DNA from: JBBIVP01 sp037439705 [NCBI: bacterium]
GTDB lineage: Bacteria > JBBIVP01
Direction: 5' to 3'
DNA length: 26,316 nucleotides
Assembly (NCBI GenBank): GCA_037439705.1
Contig: JBBIVP010000006.1
Coordinates: 1-26,316, forward strand
Shown here piece after piece: positions 6,226 through 25,681 of the stretch; position 1 is the stretch's first letter; every line of letters starts with the position of its first letter. The position numbers and the translations under genes are program-made. The notes beneath the pieces are model-generated. The model made no database searches and was not told where the DNA came from. It saw nothing but the letters and a program-made list of their open reading frames with translations.

Positions 6226-7350
6226 ATGAAGAAACTGGGCGAGATTCTTGTTGAGCATGGAATTGTAACAAAAAAACAGCTTGAAGAGGCTGTGGAATCC
6301 CAGGTAATTTTTGGAGGAAAGATAGGAACAAACCTTGTGGAACTCGGTTATCTTTCTGTAAATTCCCTTTCTGTATTTTTGAGCATCCAGTATGGAGTTC
6401 CCCTTCCACCCTATTCGGAGATAGAAAACATTCCACAGGATGTAATTTCCCTTATACCCAAGGAAATAGCGAAGAAATATCGCGTAATTCCTTTCAAAAA
6501 AGAACACAGAACACTTCATCTTATAATGGAGGAACCAGATAATATAGATGCAATAGATGAAATAACATTTTTAACGGGTCTGAAAATAAAGCCATATATC
6601 CTTCCCGAAATCCTGATAAGGTATCTTCTTGAAAGGAATTATGGGATAAAGAGGGAAACGAGATATATTCTCCTTACGAAAAGGGAAAGGGAGGAGTATT
6701 TGGGGAAGAGAGAAGAGGTTATAGAGAGGAGGGAAGAAGTTATTGAGAAAAGGGAACAACCAACTGAAGAGCTTCTTTCACAGGAGGATTTTGAAAGACT
6801 GTACATGAAGAAAGAGGAAATGGAAGAAGAGGAAGAGTTTGAGGTTGAGATTGAGGAAGAGGAACTTTCACCCATTTCGCTTGAGGAAGCAAAAGTTCTT
6901 CTTGAAAGGGCTAAAACCAGGGAAGAGCTGGGTGAGACGGTTTTAAGGCTTGCGATGAAAAAATTTAAGAGAACCTGTCTTTTTGTGTTGATCAAGGAAA
7001 AACTCATTGGATGGGATGGGATTGGAGAAGGAGTGAACAGGGGGATGATAAGGAGATTTGTGAAAAATATAGATGAGATGGGAACATTCAAATTTGTTTT
7101 CCAGACAAAGAGCCATTATGTTGGAAAGTTATCAGGCATTCCCGAGGATTTTATAAGGATGCTCGGAGGAGAACCTGCAACTGCTTTTATAATTCCCGTT
7201 CTCGTAAAGGGCAAGGTGGTAAACATGTTTTATGGAGATGGAGGAAAGGGACTTCATTCTCCAACCGATGTGGCTGACCTTCTCATATTTTTTACCCGGC
7301 TCGCTCCAGCATACGAAAGAATGATAAGAGAGAGAAAAATAAAAATTTGA
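6226..7350 (+). CDS. MshEN-domain protein without ATPase domain
   Basis: The first ~150 residues are a GspE/MshE N-terminal domain. Two tandem copies of the cyclic-di-GMP-binding MshEN motif are readable: KLGEILVEHGIVT..Q (about 3-27) and KIGTNLVELGYLS..Q (about 32-56). Both have Lys in place of the usual Arg. The family N-domain continues with IPKEIAKKYRVIPF. A Glu/Arg-rich linker (about 150-220) follows. The C-terminal ~140 residues (LSGIPEDF, FIIPVLVKGKVVNMFYGD) look GAF-like. No Walker A/B is present, so this is not a secretion ATPase; a c-di-GMP-responsive adaptor is an inference. GTG at 6223 precedes the ATG directly, and I prefer the ATG. Confidence 0.8.
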   Translation: MKKLGEILVEHGIVTKKQLEEAVESQVIFGGKIGTNLVELGYLSVNSLSVFLSIQYGVPLPPYSEIENIPQDVISLIPKEIAKKYRVIPFKKEHRTLHLIMEEPDNIDAIDEITFLTGLKIKPYILPEILIRYLLERNYGIKRETRYILLTKREREEYLGKREEVIERREEVIEKREQPTEELLSQEDFERLYMKKEEMEEEEEFEVEIEEEELSPISLEEAKVLLERAKTREELGETVLRLAMKKFKRTCLFVLIKEKLIGWDGIGEGVNRGMIRRFVKNIDEMGTFKFVFQTKSHYVGKLSGIPEDFIRMLGGEPATAFIIPVLVKGKVVNMFYGDGGKGLHSPTDVADLLIFFTRLAPAYERMIRERKIKI

Positions 7351-8498
7351 AGGTTCTTTATCTTGATCCATTTTCCGGTATAGCAGGAGATATGTTTCTC
7401 GCTTCCCTTTTTGATATGGGATTCTCTAACAGGAAGCTTGAAGAAGAGTTGAAGAAAGGAGGAATTAAAGGATTTGAGATAAAAAAAAGGAAGGTAGAAA
7501 CCAAGGGATTGAGTGGAACGAGGGTGGAGATAAAAGGAGGGGAGAAAAGGGTTTTTGATACATATAAAGGGTTCAAGGAGATTTTAAAAAATTTGAGGTT
7601 CAAAAAAGAGATAAAGGAGAAGATAAAAAATGCCTTTGAAATCCTTTTTTCCGCGGAATCCAGGATTCATGGTAAAAAACTTAATGCCATTCACTTTCAG
7701 GAACTCGGAAGCCTTGATACTCTTGTTGACATAGCAGGAGCCATCCTTTCAAAGGAGATTTTTCAGATTGAGAAGGTTTATTCATCAGCGGTAAATATAG
7801 GGAGCGGGATTGTAAGTTTTTCACATGGTTCAATGCCCTCTCCTGCACCTTTAACCCTTGAGATTCTTAAGGGTTTTCCGGTTTTCAGAGAAGGAACAGG
7901 AGAACTTACCACTCCAACTGGTGCGTTAATTTTAAGAATACTGGATGCTGAGTTCCATCCAAACCTGAGATTTTCAGTTGAAAGAATAGGTTATGGAGTT
8001 GGAAGGTATGAAAAGAATCCTTTCCCTGATGTGTTGAGAGCATTTATATGCGATGAGGTAAAGGAGGAAGAAATAATTGTGGTTGAGGCAAACATTGATG
8101 ATATGCCTCCATTTATGTTTGAAGACCTTTTTGAAAAGGCATTTTCCGCTGGTGCCCTTGAGGTTTATATTACTCCGGTGATAATGAAAAAATCGCGTCC
8201 CGGTTATCTCGTATCCATAATCTGTGAAAGGAAGAAACTTCCTGATATTTCTTCGGTTCTATTCAGGACAACCACAACCATAGGTCTCAGATATTATGGA
8301 GTTGGAAGGATTGAACTTTTAAGAAGGAAGGAGTTCATAAAATTGGGTCAGGAAAAGGTAGAGGTCAAAAAGGCATTCTGGCTTGGAAAACTGCCAAATT
8401 TTTCATACGAGTATTCAAGCCTCAAGAAAATAGCAGAAAAAAGGGAAAAGACCATAAAAGAGGTTTTAAGGGATGTGGAAAAAGGTAAAATTGAATAA
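7347..8498 (+). CDS. larC: Nickel-pincer cofactor biosynthesis protein LarC
   Basis: A 383-residue DUF111/LarC protein; the characterised family member is the CTP-dependent nickel insertase that completes the nickel-pincer nucleotide cofactor of lactate racemase and relatives. The N-terminus LYLDPFSGIAGDMFLASL and the conserved HFQELGSLDTLVDIAGA block are diagnostic. The NIGSG and PTGALIL stretches and the C-terminal EANIDDMPP...ITPVIMKKSRPG region are also typical. It is one continuous frame, unlike the frameshift-dependent larC1/larC2 of lactobacilli. The likely TTG start overlaps the upstream stop (TTGA). larB is in this window at 24921-25661 on the other strand; larE and larA are not seen. 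Confidence 0.92.
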   Translation: MKVLYLDPFSGIAGDMFLASLFDMGFSNRKLEEELKKGGIKGFEIKKRKVETKGLSGTRVEIKGGEKRVFDTYKGFKEILKNLRFKKEIKEKIKNAFEILFSAESRIHGKKLNAIHFQELGSLDTLVDIAGAILSKEIFQIEKVYSSAVNIGSGIVSFSHGSMPSPAPLTLEILKGFPVFREGTGELTTPTGALILRILDAEFHPNLRFSVERIGYGVGRYEKNPFPDVLRAFICDEVKEEEIIVVEANIDDMPPFMFEDLFEKAFSAGALEVYITPVIMKKSRPGYLVSIICERKKLPDISSVLFRTTTTIGLRYYGVGRIELLRRKEFIKLGQEKVEVKKAFWLGKLPNFSYEYSSLKKIAEKREKTIKEVLRDVEKGKIE

Positions 8499-13204: not shown

Positions 13205-13967
13205 AAGAGGATTACCTATTCTCTTTTTATTCGTCTGTGCGCCTGTGGAGAATAAAGACAAAGGGAAACTCTACGATGCCTATTACAATACAGGACTTTC
13301 CTTCATGCAGGTTGGCGATTATTCATCAGCAATTGAAAATTTCATGAAGGCTGAAAGTATAAGGAAGAATGACCCCAAACTCTATCATGCCATGGGACTT
13401 GCTTACATGGGGAAGGGACTTCTTAAAGAATCCCTTTCTTATTTTGAAAAGGCGTTGAAGATAAATCCAGATTATTCTGAAGCAAGAAACAACTTTGGAG
13501 TTGTGCTGTATCAGCTGGGAAGGTTTGATGAGGCAATAAGGGAGTTTGAAAAGGTCTTGAGTGATGTTCTCTATAAAACACCTCAGCAGGCTTATCTCAA
13601 TCTCGGACTTGTTTATTATGCGAAGGGAGATATAAGGAGAGCAGTCTTTTACTTTAAAAAGGCTATATCCGTGGACCCTGGTTTTGCTCTTGCATATGCA
13701 AATCTTGGATTTGCATACTTTGAACTGAAATCCTATGATGAGGCTGAAAGGAGTCTGGAGACAGCAATGGATTTGATGAAAAAAATGCCGGGAGCGGAGC
13801 TCAATCTTGCAGAGGTGAACCTTTATCTTGGAAGGATAAACCTGAACAAAAAGAATTATCAAAAAGCCTTTGAACTTTTTGATGAGGTGTTGAAATTAGC
13901 ACCGGGAACGAATATGGAGAAGGAAGCAAGGGAAAGGATTAGGGAGATAAAGGGAAAAACGAGATGA
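13173..13967 (+). CDS. TPR protein resembling PilF/PilW/Tgl pilotin
   Basis: A 264-residue protein with a basic N-region, a hydrophobic stretch (about 14-21) and a Cys at 22 (LFLFVCAP), a poor lipobox because Val precedes Cys. Six tetratricopeptide repeats then follow from about residue 32 to 255. Examples are YYNTGLSFMQVGDYSSAIENF and YHAMGLAYMGKGLLKESLSYF. Six TPRs behind a lipoprotein-like leader is the plan of the PilF/Tgl proteins that help assemble type IV pilus secretins at the outer membrane. No other pilus genes are in the window, so the specific role is inferred; TPR proteins are functionally diverse. Confidence 0.75.
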   Translation: MYLVNFWRAVKRGLPILFLFVCAPVENKDKGKLYDAYYNTGLSFMQVGDYSSAIENFMKAESIRKNDPKLYHAMGLAYMGKGLLKESLSYFEKALKINPDYSEARNNFGVVLYQLGRFDEAIREFEKVLSDVLYKTPQQAYLNLGLVYYAKGDIRRAVFYFKKAISVDPGFALAYANLGFAYFELKSYDEAERSLETAMDLMKKMPGAELNLAEVNLYLGRINLNKKNYQKAFELFDEVLKLAPGTNMEKEARERIREIKGKTR

Positions 13968-15142
13968 GAGAGGTTGCAATAATAGGGACAGGGACAACCA
14001 AATTTGGAGAACTTTTTGATAAGGACTATAAGGATTTGCTCTGGGAGTGTTTCAATTCAGCCCTTGAAGATGCAGGTATTGATAAGAAGGAACTTCAGGC
14101 AGGATGGCTCGGGACCTACATGCCATACGCATGGGGTTATGAAGGAAATGCAGGAAGCACTGTGGCAGAGACTCTCGGGCTCTATCCAATTCCTGTTACC
14201 AGGGTTGCCAACTATTGTTCCACAGGAATGGAGGCAGTAAGGAATGCTTATTTTGCCATAAAAAGCGGAGAGTTTGATATGGTATTCGCAGTGGGCGTTG
14301 AAAAGATGAGGGATGTTCCGTCAAGGGGAAGTCTCGTTGCCCAGCACATAGAGAAAGGACACCCCCTTTTCTGTAAGGGGCGAACTGCTCCGGGAATGTT
14401 TGCACTCCTTGCTACAAGATATCTTTACGAACACAATCTTACGAGAAGAATTCTATCAAAGGTGGCGGTGAAAAATCACGGATACGGTGCCATGAATCCA
14501 AAGGCACATTTTCAGAGGGCAATAACAGAAGAAGACGCAGAAAATGCTCCTCCTGTTGCTGAACCATTGAGACTCTATGACTGCACTCCTACCACCGATG
14601 GAGGAGCCTGCTGTATAATGACAACGGAAGAAAGAGCAAAGGCTCTTAAGAAGGATTACATCCTTATAAAAGGAATAGGATTTGCTACCTACGGTGGATA
14701 TTTCACCCTTCAGTTTGACCCCACATTTGATTTCCTCGGTTTTAAAGCCACACAGTTTGCAGCAAGGAAGGCTTATGAGATGGCAGGGATAAAGAAGCCA
14801 TCCGAAGAAATAGATGTTGTTGAATGTCATGACTGTTTCACTATCACAGAGATAATAAACTATGAAGACCTGTTTTTATGTGAAAGAGGGGAAGGGTGGA
14901 AACTGATAGAAGAAAGGAAAACCTATCTTGATGGAAAAATTCCTGTGAATGTAAGCGGAGGTTTGAAATCCTTCGGACATCCCATAGGTGCCTCAGGAGT
15001 GAGAATGGTTAATGAAATATGCGAGCAATTGAGAGGAAGATGCGGTAAAAGGCAGGTGAAGGATGCGAGTACAGGGCTTGCTCATACCCTCGGTGGTCCC
15101 GGGATAGTTTCATGCGTAATAATTCTCGCAAGACCGGATTGA
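13964..15142 (+). CDS. Thiolase (acetyl-CoA acetyltransferase-like, SCP2 type)
   Basis: A 392-residue thiolase of the archaeal/SCP-x-like class. It has the nucleophilic Cys85 in NYCSTGMEAV and VECHDCFTITEI in the C-terminal half. The catalytic GHPIGASG motif also lies in the C-terminal half. It would condense or cleave acyl-CoAs; chain length is unknown. Members of this class often work with a DUF35 (zinc ribbon plus OB) protein encoded next door, and none is seen here. The start overlaps the TPR gene stop (ATGA) and the 3' end overlaps folE, so it is embedded in an otherwise unrelated operon. Confidence 0.88.
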   Translation: MREVAIIGTGTTKFGELFDKDYKDLLWECFNSALEDAGIDKKELQAGWLGTYMPYAWGYEGNAGSTVAETLGLYPIPVTRVANYCSTGMEAVRNAYFAIKSGEFDMVFAVGVEKMRDVPSRGSLVAQHIEKGHPLFCKGRTAPGMFALLATRYLYEHNLTRRILSKVAVKNHGYGAMNPKAHFQRAITEEDAENAPPVAEPLRLYDCTPTTDGGACCIMTTEERAKALKKDYILIKGIGFATYGGYFTLQFDPTFDFLGFKATQFAARKAYEMAGIKKPSEEIDVVECHDCFTITEIINYEDLFLCERGEGWKLIEERKTYLDGKIPVNVSGGLKSFGHPIGASGVRMVNEICEQLRGRCGKRQVKDASTGLAHTLGGPGIVSCVIILARPD

Positions 15143-15702
15143 GGCTTCAGAAGATAATAAAAGACCTTATAAAAGAACTTGGTGAAGACCCTGAAAGGGA
15201 AGGATTAAGGGAAACCCCGCAAAGGGTGGAGAAATCATTAATGTATCTTTTAAAAGGATATAAAGAAGACCCAAAAAAAATTCTGGGAAAGACATTTGAG
15301 GTAAAGGATTACGATGAGATGATTGTTGTAAAGGACATAGACTTTTTTAGTCTCTGCGAGCATCATCTCCTGCCATTTTTTGGTAAAGTTCACATAGGCT
15401 ACATACCGAAGGAAAAAGTTGTGGGAATAAGCAAAATTGCAAGGTTAGTTGAGGTTTTTTCAAGGAGGCTTCAGATTCAGGAAAGGATGACAACGGAGAT
15501 TGCACAAACGCTTATGAACCACATCAATCCGCTTGGAGTAGGTGTGGTGTGTGAAGCAGTTCACCTGTGCATGATGATGAGGGGGGTTGAGAAACAGAAT
15601 TCGGTTGTTTTAACGAGTGCCATGCTCGGGGTTTTCAGAAAAAGGGCTGAAACACGCCATGAATTTTTAACCCTTATAGGGAGGGAGAAACCCATCAAAT
15701 GA
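15112..15702 (+). CDS. folE: GTP cyclohydrolase I (type IA)
   Basis: A 196-residue enzyme that converts GTP to 7,8-dihydroneopterin triphosphate, the entry to folate (and possibly other pterins). Signatures are the family start [15 protein letters not shown] (25-39), the zinc ligands C82 (SLCEHH) and C153 (HLCMMMRG) with the catalytic His of the CEHH segment, and [23 protein letters not shown]. The ATG at 15112 lies 31 bases inside the thiolase gene. A TTG at 15139 overlapping the thiolase stop is an alternative start that would trim nine residues. Confidence 0.96.
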
Positions 15703-16157
15703 AATGCCCCTTCTGCGGAGAGTTGGAGACAAAGGTTATTGACTCAAGGCTTTCAAAAGAGGGAGACCTGATAAGAAGAAGGAGAGAGTGTCTGAAGTGT
15801 TCAAAGAGATTTACCACCTTTGAAAGGTTTGAACTCACCATGCCACTTGTTGTAAAAAAGGATGGAAGAAGAGAGGTATTTTCAAGGGAAAAAATTTTCA
15901 GGGGAATTCAAAAAGCCTGTGAAAAAAGGCCGGTTTCTACAGATGAGATTGATGCTATTGTGAGAAAAATTGAGATAGCTCTCACCGAGAGGGGAGAAAA
16001 AGAGGTTCCATCATCCCTGATAGGAGAGATGGTTATAAAAGAACTTTATAACCTTGATAAGGTAGCCTATGTAAGGTTTGCCTCTGTTTATAAAGAATTC
16101 AAGGATGTAGAACAATTTATGGACGAGTTGAAAAAGCTTTTGAAAAAACGAAAATAA
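15699..16157 (+). CDS. nrdR: Ribonucleotide reductase repressor NrdR
   Basis: A 152-residue regulator with an N-terminal zinc ribbon (C3, C6, C31, C34; MKCPFCG and RRECLKC) and an ATP-cone domain (about 49-139, [16 protein letters not shown]). NrdR senses ATP/dATP and represses nrd genes by binding paired NrdR boxes. No nrd gene or obvious NrdR box is present in the window. It overlaps folE by four bases (ATGA), and its TAA overlaps the ATG of the next gene. Confidence 0.96.
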
Positions 16158-16603
16158 TGTCTCTTGAAATAAGGGAAGCAATTAAAGAAAAGGAGGAATG
16201 TTTTAAAATAAGAAAGAAAATTTTTGTAGAAAAGCTTGGTTTATTCCACGAAACTGATATTGATGAATACGACATGGACACCAGAACCATTCATATACTT
16301 GCACTTTATGACGGAATGCCTGTCGGGACAGTTCGCATAATAGATGAAGGTAATGGAATTTTCAGAGGAAGCAGACTTGCTGTTCTCCCTCAAGCTCCTC
16401 CCCTTACAGGTTTCAAACTTGTCCGATATGCGATGAATGCTGTGAAAAACAGGGGTGGAAAGTTTTTCCGGGCTTTCGTCCTTCCAGAACTTGAAGGATT
16501 TTTTAAAAGATGTGGATGGATTTGGAAAGGAGAAACTCTAATCTATGCGGGAAGAAAACATTTAATTATGTTTGCAAAATTAAATCTGAAGGACTCCTTT
16601 TAA
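16157..16603 (+). CDS. GNAT acyltransferase of the MSMEG_0567/Sll0786 type (NitE-like)
   Basis: A 148-residue GNAT-fold protein. The segment KIRKKIFVEKLGLFHETDIDEYD (about residues 17-39, shown here only as the key pattern R-x3-F-V-E-x-x-G-L-F-x-x-T-D-x-D-E) is the family signature of the Nit1C-cluster acetyltransferases. It is followed by a beta strand plus VGTVRI (104-109 region in family terms) and GSRLAVLP with FKLVRYAM. The substrate is unknown. The start overlaps the nrdR stop (TAATG). The two genes that follow (16649, 17569) are the AIR-synthase-like and radical SAM members of the same cluster, which strengthens the call. Confidence 0.8.
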   Translation: MSLEIREAIKEKEECFKIRKKIFVEKLGLFHETDIDEYDMDTRTIHILALYDGMPVGTVRIIDEGNGIFRGSRLAVLPQAPPLTGFKLVRYAMNAVKNRGGKFFRAFVLPELEGFFKRCGWIWKGETLIYAGRKHLIMFAKLNLKDSF

Positions 16604-16611
16604 CGAGGTGC

Positions 16612-16641
16612 TTGAAAATCCCGGTATTTATGAGATATAAA
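16612..16641 (+). promoter_or_regulatory. Promoter for a leaderless transcript (AIR-synthase-like operon)
   Basis: TTGAAA (16612-16617), 18-base spacer, TATAAA (16636-16641). The ATG at 16649 is 7 bases after the -10 box, exactly as at 12563. There is no Shine-Dalgarno site. Both sites begin TTGAAAATC. Confidence 0.6.
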
Positions 16642-16648
16642 TTTCAAA

Positions 16649-17578
16649 ATGGCGAAAAATATGCAGATAATTTCCAGAAATTATTTTAAATCCTTTAAAA
16701 GATGGATAAAAGAAATGAAGGAAGGTGCCGGGATTTCTATGAAGGAGTTTTCCATTAAAAAATCAGAAGACGGGCACGAAATCCTAGGAAAGGGAATTGT
16801 GGTTACTGCAGATGGTATTCTTCCAGAACTTTTGAAAAATTCTCCGTTTTTCGCAGGATGGTCATCGGTTGTGGTCGTCCATTCGGATATGATTGCTTCC
16901 GGTGGAAAACCCCTTGAACTCTTTGTGTGTATCTGCGCAGAAGACAAAAAGAATTTGAGGACAATTCTTTCTGGAATAAAATCTGCTTCCACCCTTTTGA
17001 GGATTCCAGTTTCGGGAGGGCATACAATCCTTAAAAGTCCTCCGTCTCTGAGCACATTTTTGGTAGGTGAAAAAAAAGCAAGGAATATAAAAACTGGCAA
17101 GAATCTGGTTATAGGACTGATTTTTGATGAAAATGGAAAAAAGGGGACAAAGTTTTTTCCTTCATGGAACATCTTTTATAGAAGTTCATCAGAAGAAATA
17201 GAAATGAAAAGGAATTGCGTCCTTGAGATAACAAAACTTTCCTTCCTTGTTAAAGACATAAGCACAGGAGGAATTCTCGGAACCTGTGCCATAGCGCTTG
17301 AAAGCATGGGGACTGGCGGAGAGGTGGAGATTGATAGAATTTCCCCGCCTCCCGGGATTGACCTTGGATACTGGCTTAAAGCCTTTCAAAGTTTCGGATT
17401 TATTGTTTTTACTAAAGGCGAACTGGTAGATATAATAAAAAACAAGTGTGAAAAAAATGGATTGGGATTTGAAGTGATAGGAAGGACATTGAAGGAAAGA
17501 ATTTTCTATGTAATTTACAATTCAAAGAGGATAAAGTTCTTTGACTTTTCAAAAGAGAGGATTCTCAAATGGCGTTGA
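16649..17578 (+). CDS. AIR-synthase-related PurM-like protein (Sll0787/NitF-like)
   Basis: A 309-residue member of the PurM/SelD/HypE/ThiL ATP-binding superfamily. The segments FFAGWSSVVVVHSDMIASGG (67-86) and IPVSGGHT (119-126) match the Sll0787-type AIR-synthase-related proteins of Nit1C clusters. Those have a WFAGW...SDIAAMGG region and an I-V-G-G-H-T motif. It is expected to bind ATP and activate a carbonyl, amide or carboxylate oxygen, but no reaction is established. It is not purM itself: no pur genes are nearby and the N-terminus differs. It has its own promoter and overlaps the radical SAM gene by ten bases. Confidence 0.78.
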   Translation: MAKNMQIISRNYFKSFKRWIKEMKEGAGISMKEFSIKKSEDGHEILGKGIVVTADGILPELLKNSPFFAGWSSVVVVHSDMIASGGKPLELFVCICAEDKKNLRTILSGIKSASTLLRIPVSGGHTILKSPPSLSTFLVGEKKARNIKTGKNLVIGLIFDENGKKGTKFFPSWNIFYRSSSEEIEMKRNCVLEITKLSFLVKDISTGGILGTCAIALESMGTGGEVEIDRISPPPGIDLGYWLKAFQSFGFIVFTKGELVDIIKNKCEKNGLGFEVIGRTLKERIFYVIYNSKRIKFFDFSKERILKWR

Positions 17579-18621
17579 GCCATCTTCAAAGAATAAAAAT
17601 TGAACTTCTATGCCATGGAATAAGGATTGGTGAGATGAAGAAAAATTTTACAAGGTACAGGTTCAAAAGAGCCTCCCTTTCAGAAGGACTCTATTTCGTT
17701 CTGAAAAAGAACGGAGAGGAAACAGTAGCAAATCTTCCGGTTTTTGAGGATTTTGTTGAAACCTCACCATTTTTTTACAGGGACGGGGTTATTTATAAAA
17801 ATACCTCTCCTTTATGCGAGGCTGAAATCATAGCAGAGCCTCCGTGGTATAAAGAACTTCTTCCTGATGGCAGGGAATTTCAGAGCATTCTCCAACAACA
17901 TGGAAAGGATGTTCTCGCAATTGCAATTTCTGATTGTTATTTTAAAAGGGAAGGGAGGGGATGCCTGTTTTGCGCCCTTAGAAATAATGGTGAAATGAAA
18001 AGGGCAGAGGATGTGGAACATGTGATAAAAAAATTGAAAAATGAAGGATTTTATTATAGAGAATTAAACATAAATTCAGGAACAATAGATGAGAAAAATT
18101 TTGGCGCAGAGATATATGGAGAAATTGCAAAAATAGGAAAAAAAGAAGGGTTCATGGTTTACATTCAGATTCCTCCTGTAGAAAGGGAAACCATGATATT
18201 TTTAAAGGAGTCAGGTGTTGATTCGGTAAGCATAAACCTTGAGATATACAATGACGAAATAAGAAAGAAAATTTGTCCTGGAAAATCGGGAATAGAAAAG
18301 AGAAGGTATTTCAAAGCACTTTCAGATGCAGTGGAGGTGTTTGGACCATCGCAGGTTTCCTCATGGCTTATCATAGGGCTTGAGCCTGAGGAAGATACAA
18401 TGAAAGGAATAGATGAGATTATAAAATGCGGTGCAATACCGCATCCGAGCATATTTCGTCCTCTGAAGGGCTCAAAACTGGAAAATCTTCCGCCTCCATC
18501 TCCTGAAACCTCAATGAGAATTTATACCTACCTTAATGAAAAACTTAAAAAAAATGGACCGAAGGTTCACCTGTCAAAAGCAGCGTGTGTGAACTGTGGA
18601 TGCTGTTCGGTGATGGGATGA
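17569..18621 (+). CDS. Radical SAM protein of the MSMEG_0568 type (NitD-like)
   Basis: A 350-residue radical SAM enzyme with an atypical cluster motif C123-x8-C132-x2-C135 (SDCYFKREGRGCLFC) in place of C-x3-C-x2-C. This spacing, the long N-terminal extension and the C-terminal Cys group C340-x2-C343-x-C345-C346 set it apart from MoaA or RlmN. The C-terminal group could bind a second metal centre. Motifs LNINSGT and SWLIIGLEPEEDT fit the barrel. Together with the two preceding genes it forms the acyltransferase / PurM-like / radical SAM set of Nit1C clusters. Its chemistry is unknown. Its stop overlaps the start of the TatD fusion gene (ATGA). Confidence 0.78.
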   Translation: MALSHLQRIKIELLCHGIRIGEMKKNFTRYRFKRASLSEGLYFVLKKNGEETVANLPVFEDFVETSPFFYRDGVIYKNTSPLCEAEIIAEPPWYKELLPDGREFQSILQQHGKDVLAIAISDCYFKREGRGCLFCALRNNGEMKRAEDVEHVIKKLKNEGFYYRELNINSGTIDEKNFGAEIYGEIAKIGKKEGFMVYIQIPPVERETMIFLKESGVDSVSINLEIYNDEIRKKICPGKSGIEKRRYFKALSDAVEVFGPSQVSSWLIIGLEPEEDTMKGIDEIIKCGAIPHPSIFRPLKGSKLENLPPPSPETSMRIYTYLNEKLKKNGPKVHLSKAACVNCGCCSVMG

Positions 18622-19991
18622 AAATAGCTGATTCACATGCCCATCTGAATTTTCCTGATTATGATAAAGATAGAGAAGAAGTAATTAAAAGGGCTTATGA
18701 TGGAAAGGTAAGAATAATAATAAACATAGGTTCAGGCAACGGAAAAGATGGTATAAAAGATTCCCTTGAACTTGCTCGTTCTTATGATTTTATATATTCT
18801 ACCATTGGAATTCATCCTCATGAAGCAGATTCTGTAGATTTTGAAGAAATTCTATCCTTTTCTTCTGAAAATAAAATTGTAGCAGTTGGAGAATGTGGGC
18901 TTGATTTCTACAAAAACTATTCTCCAAGGGAAAAACAGATTACAGTTTTTAAGAAACATATTGAATTCGCCCTTCAAAAAAATCTACCCCTCATAATTCA
19001 CTCAAGAAATGCAGGAGACGAAGTTATGAAGATTCTAAATAAAGGTGATGTTTGGAAAAATGGTATTATATTTCACTGCTTTTCAGGAGACGAAGGACTG
19101 GCTGATGAAATAATAAAACTCGGAGGTTTTATATCTTTTGCAGGAAACATCACATACAGAAATTCAGAGGCAGTAAAAAATCTTGTCAGAAAAATTCCTG
19201 ATGAGAGAATTCTCGTTGAAACTGACTGCCCATTTCTTTCGCCTGTGCCATATAGAGGTAAAAGAAATGAACCCCTTTATGTATGGATGACTGCAGACTT
19301 TCTTGCAAAGATAAGGGGAATAACTGCGGAAGATATGGGCAGAATTTCTTTCGTTAATACAGTGAGGGTTTTCAAACTTCCTGTGAAAATAGAGCCATCC
19401 ATTGTTTATAAAATAAGGCGTTCCCTTTACATAAACCTTACAAATGAGTGCACTCTCTCCTGTACATTTTGTGGAAAAAAGAGGTCATATTTTGTGAAGG
19501 GACACTATCTCAAACTTGAAAGGGAACCATCCGTTGAAGAGGTTCTCTCGGAGATAAAATGTTATAGCAGAGATTCCTTTGACGAGGTTGTTTTCTGCGG
19601 ATATGGAGAACCCCTTTTGAGGCTTGATAAAGTTAAAGAAATTGGAAGGGAATTAAAATCGACGGGAATAAAGACGAGAATTGACACCGATGGACTTGCA
19701 AATCTGGTTTACCGAAGGAACATAGTTCCTGAACTTTCAGGAATGATAGACTGCGTTTCTGTAAGCCTGAATGCTCCTGACGAAGAAACCTATGCAAAGA
19801 TATGTCCCTCCCCTTACGGGAGGGAAGCATGGAGGCATGCCTGCGAATTTGTTAAGGAGTGCACAAAATTCATTCCCGAGGTAATAATAACTGCAGTATC
19901 ATTACCTTCCATTTCCTATGAAGACATGGATAAACTTGCAAAAACTCTCGGTGTCAAATTCAGAATTAGAGAATATAATGAACTCGGCTAA
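18618..19991 (+). CDS. TatD-family hydrolase fused to a radical SAM domain
   Basis: A 457-residue two-domain protein. Residues 1-255 are a complete TatD metal-dependent hydrolase with metal ligands H7 and H9 (DSHAHL), E92 (GECGLDFYK), H128 (IHSRN), H153 (FHCFSG) and D203 (ETDCPFLSP). Residues about 265-457 are a small radical SAM domain with C278-x3-C282-x2-C285 (NECTLSCTFCGKK) and GYGEPLL (328-334). This domain resembles the TatD-associated radical SAM family, which is usually a separate neighbouring gene. The ATG at 18618 gives the standard TatD N-terminus and an ATGA overlap with the gene before. TatD proteins are nucleases; what the second domain modifies is unknown. Confidence 0.9.
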   Translation: MKIADSHAHLNFPDYDKDREEVIKRAYDGKVRIIINIGSGNGKDGIKDSLELARSYDFIYSTIGIHPHEADSVDFEEILSFSSENKIVAVGECGLDFYKNYSPREKQITVFKKHIEFALQKNLPLIIHSRNAGDEVMKILNKGDVWKNGIIFHCFSGDEGLADEIIKLGGFISFAGNITYRNSEAVKNLVRKIPDERILVETDCPFLSPVPYRGKRNEPLYVWMTADFLAKIRGITAEDMGRISFVNTVRVFKLPVKIEPSIVYKIRRSLYINLTNECTLSCTFCGKKRSYFVKGHYLKLEREPSVEEVLSEIKCYSRDSFDEVVFCGYGEPLLRLDKVKEIGRELKSTGIKTRIDTDGLANLVYRRNIVPELSGMIDCVSVSLNAPDEETYAKICPSPYGREAWRHACEFVKECTKFIPEVIITAVSLPSISYEDMDKLAKTLGVKFRIREYNELG

Positions 19992-22780: not shown

Positions 22781-22810
22781 AATTTCCCTCCCCTCCTCAA
22801 CGAATTTTAC
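22777..22810. terminator. Inverted repeat between convergent genes
   Basis: GTAAAATT (22777-22784) and AATTTTAC (22803-22810) form perfect 8-base arms around an 18-base C-rich loop. Each arm contains the stop codon of one of the converging genes (TAA of the UDP-sugar gene and, on the other strand, TAA of groEL). It could stop transcription from both sides, though the stem is AT-rich. Confidence 0.4.
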
Positions 22811-24540
22811 ATTTCGTAGTCAGGTGGCATATGAGGGATTTTTTCTTCCTTCTTTGGTTTTTCAGCAATCATCACTTCGGTGGTGAGCAGGAGTGAGGCA
22901 ACATTAGCCGCGCTCTGAAGGGCAGTTCTTACTACTTTTGTTGGGTCAATAACTCCGGTCTCAACGAGGTCTTCAAATTTTTCAGTCTGGGCATTGAACC
23001 CGAGGTTTCCTTTTCCCTGTTTGATCTTTTCAACAACGATGCTTCCATCATATCCAGCATTCTGAGCTATCCATCTTGCTGGCTCCTCAAGTGCCTTTTT
23101 CACTATATGGACACCAAATATCTCATCACCCTGGAGGGTGTAGAAAGAGTCGGGATGTGGAAGTTTCAATTCTTCAGGAGGAATATCTTTTTCTTTTCTC
23201 TTCCTTTCAAGTTCTTCCTCGTGCGCCTTTTTCAGATTTTTAAGAGCGGCTTCCGGATCTTCCAGGACTTTTGAAGCCCTTATGTAGGCAACGCCACCAC
23301 CACAAACTATACCTTCTTCAACCGCAGCCTTTGTAGCGTGAAGGGCATCTTCAACCCTTGCTTTCTTTTCCTTCATTGCGGGTTCAGTTGGCGCTCCAAC
23401 ATGGATAACTGCCACTCCTCCTGCAAGTTTGGCTAATCTCTCCTGAAGTTTTTCTCTGTCATAATCGGAGGTGGTTTCTTCAATCTGTTTTCTTATCTGG
23501 GCTATTCTTCCTTTTATTTCCTCCTTGCTTCCATGACCATCTACAATCGTTGTGTGTTCCTTATCAACAATGACTTTTCCAGCCCTTCCAAGTTCGCTCA
23601 ACTGGACACTTTCAAGCTTTATGCCGAGTTCATCTGCTATCATCTTTCCACCTGTAAGAATAGCAATGTCCTCAAGCATTGCCTTTCTCCTCTCGCCAAA
23701 GCCTGGAGCCTTTACCGCACAGCATTTGAGTACTCCGCGTACCTTATTTACCACCAAAGTAGCAAGGGCTTCTCCTTCCACATCCTCTGCTATAATGAGA
23801 AGGGGCTTTCCTTCCCTTGCAATTTTTTCCAGAAGCGGGAGAAGTTCTTTCATATTGCTTATTTTTTTCTCGTGGCACAGGATGTAAGCATCCTCAAGAA
23901 CGCATTCCATCTTTTCAGGATCTGTTATGAAGTAAGGAGAGAGGTATCCCCTGTCAAACTGCATTCCTTCCACAAGTTCAAGGGTTGTCTCAAGTCCTTT
24001 TGCTTCCTCAACAGTGATAACGCCCTCCTTTCCAACCTTTTCCATCGCCTCAGCTAATATGGCGCCTATGGATTCATCATTATTGGCAGAGATTGTTCCA
24101 ACCTGCTGGATCTCTTTTTTATCTTTTGTAACTTTTGAAAGATTATTCTGTAGTTCGTACACAACCAGTTCTACTGCCTTCTCAATTCCCCTCTGTATGT
24201 CCATAGGATTATGTCCTGCTACAATAAGCTTAAGTCCTTCTTTATATATTGCCTGAGCAAGAACAGCAGCAGTGGTGGTTCCATCTCCAGCCACCTCGGA
24301 AGTCTTGCTTGCTACTTCCTTGATGAGTTGTGCTCCCATATTCTCAAATTTATCTTCAAGTTCTACCTCTTTTGCTACTGTTACACCGTCTTTTGTGACT
24401 AAAGGTGCGCCAAATGTCTTTTCTATTATCACATTCCTTCCCCTTGGGCCGAGTGTGGCCTTTACAGCATTCGCTATTATGTCTACTCCCTTCGTTATTT
24501 TATCCCTTGCCTTATCACTAAAAGTTAATTCCTTCGCCAT
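22807..24540 (-). CDS. groEL: Chaperonin GroEL, with equatorial insertion
   Basis: A 577-residue Hsp60 chaperonin that folds proteins inside a double ring with GroES and ATP. Standard blocks are [11 protein letters not shown] (31-41), [13 protein letters not shown] (87-99), [16 protein letters not shown] and [13 protein letters not shown]. It is about 30 residues longer than usual. Compared with E. coli GroEL (from memory) there is an insertion of about 37 charged residues at about 430-468 ([19 protein letters not shown]... [11 protein letters not shown]). The C-terminus ends PHMPPDYEM without a GGM repeat tail. An ideal AAGGAGGTGA (24545-24554, - strand) precedes the ATG, 21 bases after groES. 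Confidence 0.96.
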
Positions 24541-24920: not shown

Positions 24921-25661
24921 TTAAAGCCTGTTTATGAGAGATGCTGTATAGGCTGCTCCAAAGCCATTATCTATGTTGACCACAACAACATTTGGAGAGC
25001 ATGAATTGAGCATTCCTAAAAGTGCAGCAATTCCCCCTGTTCCAGTCCCGTATCCTCTGCTTGTCGGAACTGCTATAACCGGTTTATCAACAAGTCCTCC
25101 AACCACTGATGGTAAAGCCCCTTCCATTCCTGCCACTACAATCAGGACCCTCGCTGAACGAATTTTTTCGTAATGTGAGAAGAGCCTGTGAATTCCGGCA
25201 ACGCCCACATCGGTGATTTTTTCTACCCTGTTTCCCATCACCTTTGCAGTAATATATGCTTCCTCCACCACCTGTATATCACTTGCTCCTGCGGAAATTA
25301 TAAGTATTTTTCCTTTTCCAGTTATCCTTTTTGAGGAATGTTTGTAAAAGCATCTTCCTTCTTTGCTGTAATTAAAATTTTTGAATATTCTCTTCAATTT
25401 CATTCCTGTTTCGGGGTCAACCCTGGTTACCAGCAGGTCAGGATATGTTTTTTCCATTTGAGAGATTGCCTTTTTCAGGTCCTCAAATTTTTTCCCTTCC
25501 CCCATTATAACTTCAGGAAAACCATGTCTTAAAGCCCTGTGCATATCAAGGGTAATATTTCCTTCGTTGAAAATGAAGAGTTTCTTTAAAATTTCAAGAA
25601 ACTTTTCTTCTGAAATTTTTCCGCTTTTGAGGTCTTTTATGAGTGCTTTTAGGTTTTTCAT
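24921..25661 (-). CDS. larB: Nickel-pincer cofactor biosynthesis protein LarB
   Basis: A 246-residue protein of the LarB family, which carboxylates and hydrolyses nicotinic acid adenine dinucleotide to start the nickel-pincer cofactor pathway. An N-terminal helical segment is followed by an AIR-carboxylase-like domain (about 115-246). It contains [50 protein letters not shown] and [12 protein letters not shown], all typical of LarB. A TTG at 25664 lies just before; I choose the ATG. larC lies 16 kb away on the + strand. groES-groEL follow on the same strand with their own promoter. The cofactor is known only for LarA-type racemases, and no LarA is in the window. Confidence 0.93.
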
Positions 25662-25681
25662 CAATTTAGTCTCTTGTTCAA

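What the first reader, a model, noticed from the sequence alone, without database searches (positions are those of the whole stretch)
16157..18621. Reduced Nit1C-like trio: GNAT, PurM-like and radical SAM genes without a nitrilase
Seen: three consecutive genes with the FVEKLGLF...TDIDEYD acyltransferase motif, the FFAGW...SDMIASGG / VSGGHT PurM-like motif, and an atypical C-x8-C-x2-C radical SAM motif with a C-x2-C-x-C-C tail. Established: these families co-occur as NitE, NitF and NitD in Nit1C clusters (MSMEG_0567/0568, Sll0786/0787), tied to nitrile/cyanide nitrogen assimilation, together with a nitrilase and a flavoprotein. Inference: here the trio stands alone between nrdR and a TatD fusion, so it may be a minimal or ancestral pathway core whose chemistry does not depend on the nitrilase. 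The PurM-like gene has its own promoter.
Basis: partly seen in the sequence, partly recalled or inferred. Interest (0 to 1): 0.72.

Follow-up and report, generated by a model that had tools for sequence, protein, structure and literature searches.

The report
Nitrilase-free GNAT, PurM-like, radical SAM trio
Three neighbouring genes of an unidentified microbe are distant relatives of the core of a known cyanide/nitrile gene cluster, and related gene sets without the nitrilase turn up in other bacteria and in many Asgard archaea, which suggests that the core reaction is separate from, and may be older than, nitrile breakdown.

Summary
In detail: three intact co-directional ORFs encode a GNAT (16157-16603), a PurM-like protein (16649-17578) and a radical SAM protein (17569-18621), with the motifs described. 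All three are homologous to NitE/NitF/NitD, but none reaches its NCBIfam equivalog cut-off. The rSAM is not a NitD orthologue: it falls in a separate clade ("W-type", six rows, 100/99) found in 5 of 395 genomes from the phylum of a Syntrophobacterales MAG. In one (G712) it sits in one run with a NitD-type rSAM, a GNAT and a PurM; in the other four it has neither beside it. Among loci held, all three window proteins resemble that phylum's most. No nitrilase lies in the window; the host genome is not held. Elsewhere the trio occurs without an adjacent nitrilase: a recurrent cassette in that phylum (HdrD-like Fe-S protein, SsuABC-like importer, rSAM-GNAT often fused, PurM), and rSAM plus PurM in 100 of 195 Asgard genomes (two of three PurMs scanned pass as "methanogenesis marker 2"). 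Nit1C is one clade beside these. So a nitrilase-independent core is supported; this window is a divergent variant, not its ancestor. The chemistry is unproven. A private PurM promoter is possible, not shown.

The parts
16157..16603 (+). GNAT acyltransferase, NitE / MSMEG_0567 / Sll0786 type
   Evidence: TIGR04045 67.6 bits (cut-off 68.45); best relatives among loci held 45% and 43% identical, in L109 and L253; 20 invariant columns over 19 rows
16649..17578 (+). PurM-like (AIR synthase related) protein, divergent member of the NitF / sll0787 / methanogenesis-marker-2 family
   Evidence: PF00586 54.1 and PF02769 32.5 bits, both over cut-off; TIGR04049 152 and TIGR03267 139 bits, both below cut-off; model pLDDT 89, fold matches PurL, SelD, HypE, ThiL
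17569..18621 (+). radical SAM protein of the W-type clade, sister to NitD / MSMEG_0568; CX8CX2C motif and CXXCXCC C-terminal motif
   Evidence: NF045502 171.9 bits (cut-off 125), TIGR04043 145.5 (cut-off 303.7); clade of six rows 100/99; model pLDDT 90, nearest solved folds lipoyl synthase, HydE, biotin synthase
16612..16641 (+). possible promoter (TTGAAA-N18-TATAAA) before the PurM-like gene; unproven
   Evidence: only match of that pattern in the window, 0.06 expected, pattern chosen after the fact; not counted by the standard scan
15699..16157 (+). nrdR, upstream gene overlapping the GNAT start by one base (context)
   Evidence: PF03477 and PF22811
15112..15702 (+). folE, GTP cyclohydrolase I, overlapping nrdR (context)
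   Evidence: PF01227
18585..19991 (+). TatD nuclease fused to a TIGR04038 radical SAM domain; likely start ATG 18618 (context)
   Evidence: TIGR00010 262 bits, TIGR04038 253 bits; sequence

Best explanation
The three genes form one small-molecule module: an acyltransferase, an ATP-using PurM-fold enzyme and a radical SAM enzyme with a probable auxiliary Fe-S cluster, acting on one metabolite. It is a divergent, nitrilase-independent relative of the NitD-NitE-NitF core, closest in all three proteins (among loci held) to trio loci from the phylum of a Syntrophobacterales MAG, with the radical SAM step carried by a sister of NitD (W-type). Shown: homology, adjacency and overlap of the genes, conserved cysteines and aspartates, and recurrence of the three activities together (fused, adjacent, or for rSAM and PurM in the same genome) without an adjacent nitrilase in other bacteria and, for rSAM and PurM, in Asgard archaea. 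Inferred: that they act in sequence on one compound. Proposed chemistry, inference only: the GNAT forms an N-acyl amide from an acyl-CoA, the PurM-like enzyme activates the amide or carbonyl oxygen with ATP as PurM, PurL and HypE do (recalled), and the radical SAM enzyme makes a C-C, C-S or C-N bond or rearrangement at an unactivated carbon. In Nit1C a nitrilase was added and uses or finishes a product of this core.
For: Homology of all three. Best blastp relatives of GNAT and PurM, and the best of the rSAM, among all loci held are in loci of one phylum survey. In G712 one contig carries, in order, the 3' end of a NitD-type rSAM, a W-type rSAM (42% identical to the window's), a B12-binding rSAM, a GNAT and a PurM; a second contig, alike at 91% over 934 bases, adds SsuA-, permease- and ATPase-like genes upstream. 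NitD-type rSAM at >=380 bits in 24 of 247 genomes of that phylum, the query's own genome included. Of 24 NitD-type loci of 23 genomes read there, 14 have rSAM and GNAT in one frame and 8 more a separate GNAT, 15 have the ABC ATPase, 17 the CCG Fe-S protein, 6 the FMN reductase and 15 a PurM (G712's PurM is on its other contig); several are cut by contig ends (counted by hand). tblastn finds no nitrilase in 39 loci of that phylum or 20 Asgard loci. A Nit6803-type nitrilase is absent at E<=1e-10 from 4 of 5 genomes, 19 of 25 (G004 is in both) and 15 of 20, and from all five W-type genomes. Asgard: both 100, rSAM only 11, PurM only 15, neither 69 of 195, Fisher p 6e-26; a GNAT gene beside or fused to the rSAM in 6 of 20 Asgard loci, Pfam-confirmed in all six. 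Trees. Folds.
Against: None of the three proteins reaches its family's equivalog cut-off. Of the five other W-type loci only G712 has a GNAT and PurM beside the W-type gene; G217 has neither in its genome at the thresholds used, G731 has its trio about 15-20 kb away around a NitD-type rSAM, and G090 and G016 keep a NitD-type rSAM and GNAT elsewhere, so the W-type enzyme can work without these partners. The window PurM has the longest end branch of its tree (3.69) and reads SED where relatives have GDD, so it may have changed function. Nine of 35 genomes of the phylum and 2 of 10 Asgard genomes tested have a nitrilase homologue somewhere. In Asgard loci read, rSAM and PurM are not neighbours and the GNATs are of another subfamily; relatedness and completeness were not controlled in the Fisher test and its thresholds were set after seeing the outputs. 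No chemistry was tested.
Confidence: 0.65

Rival explanations
1. The window carries the remnant of a Nit1C cluster that lost its nitrilase and still serves nitrile or cyanide nitrogen use.
For: Same three families; one Alteromonadaceae locus (L053) inside the Nit1C clade has no adjacent nitrilase.
Against: The rSAM lies outside the Nit1C clade; closest relatives held are nitrilase-free loci; gene order differs; no Sll0783, MSMEG_0570 or flavoprotein homologue in the window.
Confidence: 0.05
2. The W-type radical SAM enzyme has taken up a different reaction, and the window GNAT and PurM follow it into a pathway that differs from the NitDEF reaction, perhaps one with B12-dependent radical methylation.
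For: Separate clade; in G217, G712 and G731 the W-type gene is followed by a B12-binding rSAM, with a methyltransferase between in G217 and G731; long PurM branch; G712, G731, G090 and G016 also have a NitD-type rSAM; GNAT and PurM are beside the W-type gene in only one of five other loci.
Against: The window has no B12-binding rSAM or methyltransferase among the genes next to the trio; the G712 gene run links W-type to the ordinary trio.
Confidence: 0.25
3. The bacterial cassette imports a sulfonate- or thiamine-precursor-like compound and breaks or rebuilds it without oxygen, the radical SAM enzyme standing in for the oxygen-dependent SsuD (role of SsuD recalled).
For: Binding protein over the SsuA_fam cut-off (182.5 against 163.5); FMN_red protein in 6 of 24 loci; transporter beside NitD-type and, in G090 and G016, W-type rSAM.
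Against: That binding-protein family has many substrates; the window has no such transporter, and the binding protein and permease are each matched in only 1 of 74 Nit1C loci and in 1 and 0 of 20 Asgard loci; does not explain the GNAT or PurM.
Confidence: 0.08
4. Three unrelated genes lie together by chance.
For: Flanking genes (folE, nrdR, tatD) are unrelated housekeeping genes.
Against: The same three families recur together in Nit1C, in the cassette of the L024 phylum and in two Chloroflexota loci.
Confidence: 0.03

Closest known systems
Nit1C cluster (nitBCDEFGH; Podar 2005, PMC1199592, passages read)
   Same: GNAT, PurM-like and radical SAM genes adjacent; same protein superfamilies and motif positions
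   Different: No nitrilase, NitB/Sll0783, NitG or flavoprotein in the window; order rotated; rSAM in a sister clade; all below equivalog cut-offs. Podar 2005 took conservation of all seven genes as a sign of selection on the whole cluster
Nitrilase-free rSAM-GNAT-PurM cassette of the phylum of Syntrophobacterales Delta_01 (L024, L111-L129, L143, L144; described here)
   Same: Trio without adjacent nitrilase; closest relatives held of the window GNAT and PurM
   Different: NitD-type rSAM, fused to the GNAT in 14 of 24 loci, often with an SsuABC-like importer and HdrD-like Fe-S protein; the window has a W-type rSAM and none of these neighbours
W-type rSAM of G712, G217, G731, G090, G016
   Same: Same clade, 42 to 31% identical
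   Different: In G217 and G731 followed by methyltransferase and B12-binding rSAM genes, in G712 by a B12-binding rSAM before GNAT and PurM, in G090 and G016 by an SsuABC-like importer
Methanogenesis marker 2 (TIGR03267)
   Same: Same PurM-like family; two of three Asgard relatives scanned pass its cut-off
   Different: Window protein 139 bits against 365
Lipoyl synthase, LipS2, biotin synthase, HydE (radical SAM)
   Same: Core barrel; weak profile matches
   Different: TMq about 0.48; other cysteine spacing (recalled); N-terminal strands before the barrel

Membership tests
Nit1C gene cluster | Subfamily-1 nitrilase in the cluster | tested here: not met
   No nitrilase by tblastn in the 26 kb window; rest of genome not testable
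Nit1C gene cluster | NitB (Sll0783), NitG (MSMEG_0570), NitH (MSMEG_0569 flavoprotein) present | tested here: not met
   No tblastn match in the window
Nit1C gene cluster | Order rSAM-GNAT-PurM | tested here: not met
   Window order is GNAT-PurM-rSAM
NitD / MSMEG_0568 (TIGR04043) | Score over 303.7 bits | tested here: not met
   145.5 bits; sister clade in tree
NitE / MSMEG_0567 GNAT (TIGR04045) | Score over 68.45 bits | tested here: inconclusive
   67.6 bits over nearly the whole profile; relative in G712 scores 133.3
NitF / sll0787 (TIGR04049) | Score over 321.3 bits | tested here: not met
   152 bits; on the family's side of the branch (95/91) that parts it from three weaker PurM-fold rows
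Methanogenesis marker 2 (TIGR03267) | Score over 365 bits | tested here: not met
   139.4 bits
Radical SAM superfamily | Radical_SAM domain and three-cysteine motif | tested here: met
   PF04055 45.8 against 29.5; NF045502 171.9 against 125; C123, C132, C135
PurM-like (AIRS) superfamily | AIRS N- and C-terminal domains | tested here: met
   PF00586 and PF02769 over cut-off; D41, D80, D203 and GGH kept in all 39 aligned rows
W-type rSAM clade (defined here) | Falls in the clade; A10 profile match far above NitD-type | tested here: met
   100/99; W-type genomes 409-654 bits, next genome 223; at most 5 candidates scored per genome
Nitrile or cyanide metabolism | Activity or growth phenotype | not testable with these tools
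   No experiment

The most novel reading that the evidence does not exclude
The radical SAM and PurM-like pair, with a GNAT, is an old pathway of anaerobes and archaea that predates Nit1C: rSAM and PurM occur together in about half of the Asgard genomes sampled, where two of three PurM proteins scanned pass as methanogenesis marker 2, and all three occur in a bacterial cassette with its own importer and electron-transfer proteins. Nit1C is one branch that gained a nitrilase. If so, methanogenesis marker 2, NitF and the window protein share one reaction, and neither the methanogenesis nor the nitrile label describes it.
Probability: 0.45. Interest if true: 0.75.

Novelty: new variant of a known kind. 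Interest (0 to 1): 0.55.

Why it matters
Nit1C has been read through its nitrilase. A core that occurs without the nitrilase in distant bacteria and archaea says that the unknown step is the radical SAM, GNAT and PurM-like one, and offers natural nitrilase-free systems in which to look for its product. It also ties an uncharacterised methanogen protein family to a radical SAM partner outside methanogens.

Tried and rejected
A single-protein scan of genome contigs with the window rSAM found no relative; the alignment scan A4 was needed. It kept only the best 80 of 536 confirmed candidates, so its 74 loci with and 6 without a nitrilase hit (L007, L008, L010, L024, L036, L053; L036 is cut upstream) are no census. 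Plasmid searches matched 518, 518 and 513 records, all below 60% identity; the rows listed were nearly all Nit1C-type, one (H60, L006) was not. A direct NitD assignment was rejected by the trees, and so was the 'second' rSAM group (L132-L138). The PurM tree does not place the window protein within the family. Among 201 Chloroflexota genomes only the two query genomes scored over 560 bits; four others scored 75-169. In 14 named control genomes TIGR04043 matches Synechococcus elongatus (over cut-off) and Methanosarcina acetivorans, one of the two over it; TIGR03267 passes in 2 of 14, so methanogens can have the PurM without a NitD match. The host taxon could not be determined. G048-type 'phylum' names are not given by the tool; Asgard is taken from the Jordarchaeum record (Promethearchaeati; that this equals Asgard is recalled). 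It also said that W-type loci without GNAT and PurM were two of five; the calls show four of five, so I lowered the main confidence from 0.70 to 0.65 and raised the second rival to 0.25. Literature: 'Nit1C' 24 papers (23 listed), MSMEG_0568 none, Sll0786/0787 one, combined terms (listings, 95 showing 10 of 44). No paper on a nitrilase-free trio was seen in these listings, which is no proof that none exists. Passages read: PMC11049912, PMC1199592, PMC3226654, PMC6368324, PMC3901256. The chemistry of ThiL, SelD, HypE, PurM and SsuD is recalled.
Full report
What is there. The window holds three intact, co-directional genes: a 148-aa GNAT, a 309-aa PurM-like protein and a 350-aa radical SAM protein. 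They lie in a gene run that starts upstream (thiolase, folE, nrdR) and continues into a TatD-rSAM fusion, with short overlaps at the junctions nrdR-GNAT, PurM-rSAM and rSAM-TatD and a 45-base gap before the PurM gene. That gap holds a TTGAAA-N18-TATAAA pair (16612-16641), the only one in the window, 0.06 expected; the pattern was chosen after seeing it, the standard scan does not count it, and a start there would leave almost no leader. The promoter is possible, not shown.

What the proteins are. NCBIfam gives TIGR04045 67.6 bits (cut-off 68.45) for the GNAT, TIGR04049 152 (321.3) and methanogenesis marker 2 139 (365) for the PurM-like protein, and NF045502 171.9 (125) and TIGR04043 145.5 (303.7) for the rSAM. 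Pfam confirms the AIRS and Radical_SAM domains and gives only sub-threshold FeeM/LuxI-type matches for the GNAT. Identities to five Nit1C proteins are 28-29% (rSAM), 25-31% (GNAT) and 22-25% (PurM). C132, C135, C340, C343 and C346 are invariant in 38 aligned rows, and C123 in the eight rows of A5. In the PurM-like protein D41, D80, D203 and the GGH motif are kept in 39 rows, but GDD reads SED. Models with pLDDT 90 and 89 match lipoyl synthase, HydE and biotin synthase, and PurL, SelD, HypE and ThiL. Profiles agree: ThiL, PurL, SelD, HypE; lipoyl and biotin synthase and ThiH, with pentatricopeptide-repeat chains also listed and read as spurious; small GNATs such as SACOL1063.

Where the rSAM belongs. 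In a 77-row tree the window rSAM joined L130 and L131 (100/99), outside the rows of Nit1C, the cassette and Asgard archaea. A profile of these three (A10) over 395 genomes of the phylum found five genomes at 409-654 bits and the next at 223. With the new members the clade has six rows at 100/99. I call it W-type. In G712 it follows a NitD-type rSAM and precedes a B12-binding rSAM, a GNAT and a PurM; another contig, alike at 91% over 934 bases, puts SsuA-, permease- and ATPase-like genes upstream. In G217 and G731 it is followed by a methyltransferase and a B12-binding rSAM, in G090 and G016 by an SsuABC-like importer. In these four loci no GNAT or PurM of the family is beside it; G217 has neither in its genome at the thresholds used. 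The window gene has none of these other neighbours. Best blastp relatives among loci held are 45% and 43% for the GNAT (L109, L253), 30-31% for PurM (L234, L024, L122, L114) and 42% and 40% for the rSAM (L253, L130).

Trios without an adjacent nitrilase. Of the 80 kept loci closest to the window rSAM in genome contigs, 74 have a nitrilase match and 6 do not, one of them cut upstream. A Nit6803-type nitrilase is absent from the genomes behind L007, L008, L010 and L024; the genome behind L053 has four homologues elsewhere. In the phylum of L024, 24 of 247 genomes have a NitD-type rSAM at 380 bits or more and G217 a W-type at 288. I read 24 NitD-type loci of 23 genomes of that phylum, not all that the surveys found. 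They show a cassette of CCG-domain Fe-S protein (17 of 24), SsuA-like binding protein, permease and ATPase (ATPase in 15), sometimes an FMN reductase (6), rSAM with GNAT in the same frame (14) or separate (8), and PurM (15) (counted by hand). tblastn finds no nitrilase in 39 loci of this phylum. In whole genomes a nitrilase homologue was found in 6 of 25 and 3 of 10 further genomes, each on another contig than the rSAM hit; contigs are often short, so this is weak evidence of distance.

Asgard archaea (phylum of the Jordarchaeum MAG). In 195 genomes, 111 have the rSAM at E<=1e-80 and 115 the PurM-like protein at E<=1e-40; both 100, rSAM only 11, PurM only 15, neither 69, Fisher p 6e-26. Relatedness and completeness are not controlled. 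Two of three Asgard PurM proteins scanned pass the methanogenesis-marker-2 cut-off and two of three rSAMs pass TIGR04043. In the 20 genomes searched for both, the PurM hits lie away from the rSAM. A GNAT of another subfamily is next to or fused with the rSAM in 6 of 20 loci read, all six confirmed by Pfam, and a gene like the alpha subunit of NDP-forming acyl-CoA synthetase is next to it in others. The A9 GNAT profile matches only 3 of 20 Asgard genomes, weakly. A nitrilase homologue occurs in 2 of 10 Asgard genomes tested; in G275 it lies about 15 kb from the rSAM.

History. Nit1C rSAMs and the two nitrilase-free Chloroflexota rows (which have Sll0783) form one clade (100/99); Nit1C alone, with the L053 row, has 96/71, and 98/88 without that row. 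The cassette rows are next to them. The simplest reading is a core joined first by Sll0783 and then by the nitrilase; the trees are rooted at the midpoint, so this is inference. [quoted passage not shown] the wider sample shows that the core is separable. The window is a side branch of the core family, not its ancestor.

Mechanism. Shown: homology, gene linkage, conserved residues. Inferred: the GNAT acylates an amine, the PurM-like enzyme activates a carbonyl or amide with ATP, and the rSAM makes a bond or rearrangement at an unactivated carbon. I put about 0.2 on this specific chemistry and 0.65 on the statement that the trio is a nitrilase-independent module of this family.

Verdict.

Noticed in passing
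window 18585-19991: TatD nuclease fused to a TIGR04038 radical SAM domain directly after the trio, with a likely ATGA overlap.
   Followed up: partly
window 7347-8498 and 24921-25664: LarC and LarB of nickel-pincer cofactor synthesis lie about 16 kb apart on opposite strands.
   Followed up: no
window 13964-15142; L131, L252, L254: Thiolase genes lie near the W-type rSAM in the window and in three other W-type loci, in L131 and L254 with a ChsH2-type OB-fold protein; not tested against chance.
   Followed up: partly
L132-L138: A second NF045502 radical SAM group in the same phylum; in L132 it has a ThiF-family gene and a DASS symporter beside it, and genes alike recur in most of these loci.
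   Followed up: partly
L187-L190: In some Asgard loci the rSAM lies next to methylmalonyl-CoA mutase, B12-binding and, in L188-L190, MeaB genes.
   Followed up: partly
window 22807-24540: GroEL-like ORF of 577 aa on the minus strand whose best GroEL match stops near residue 432, with a second matched stretch; frame or assembly not examined.
   Followed up: no
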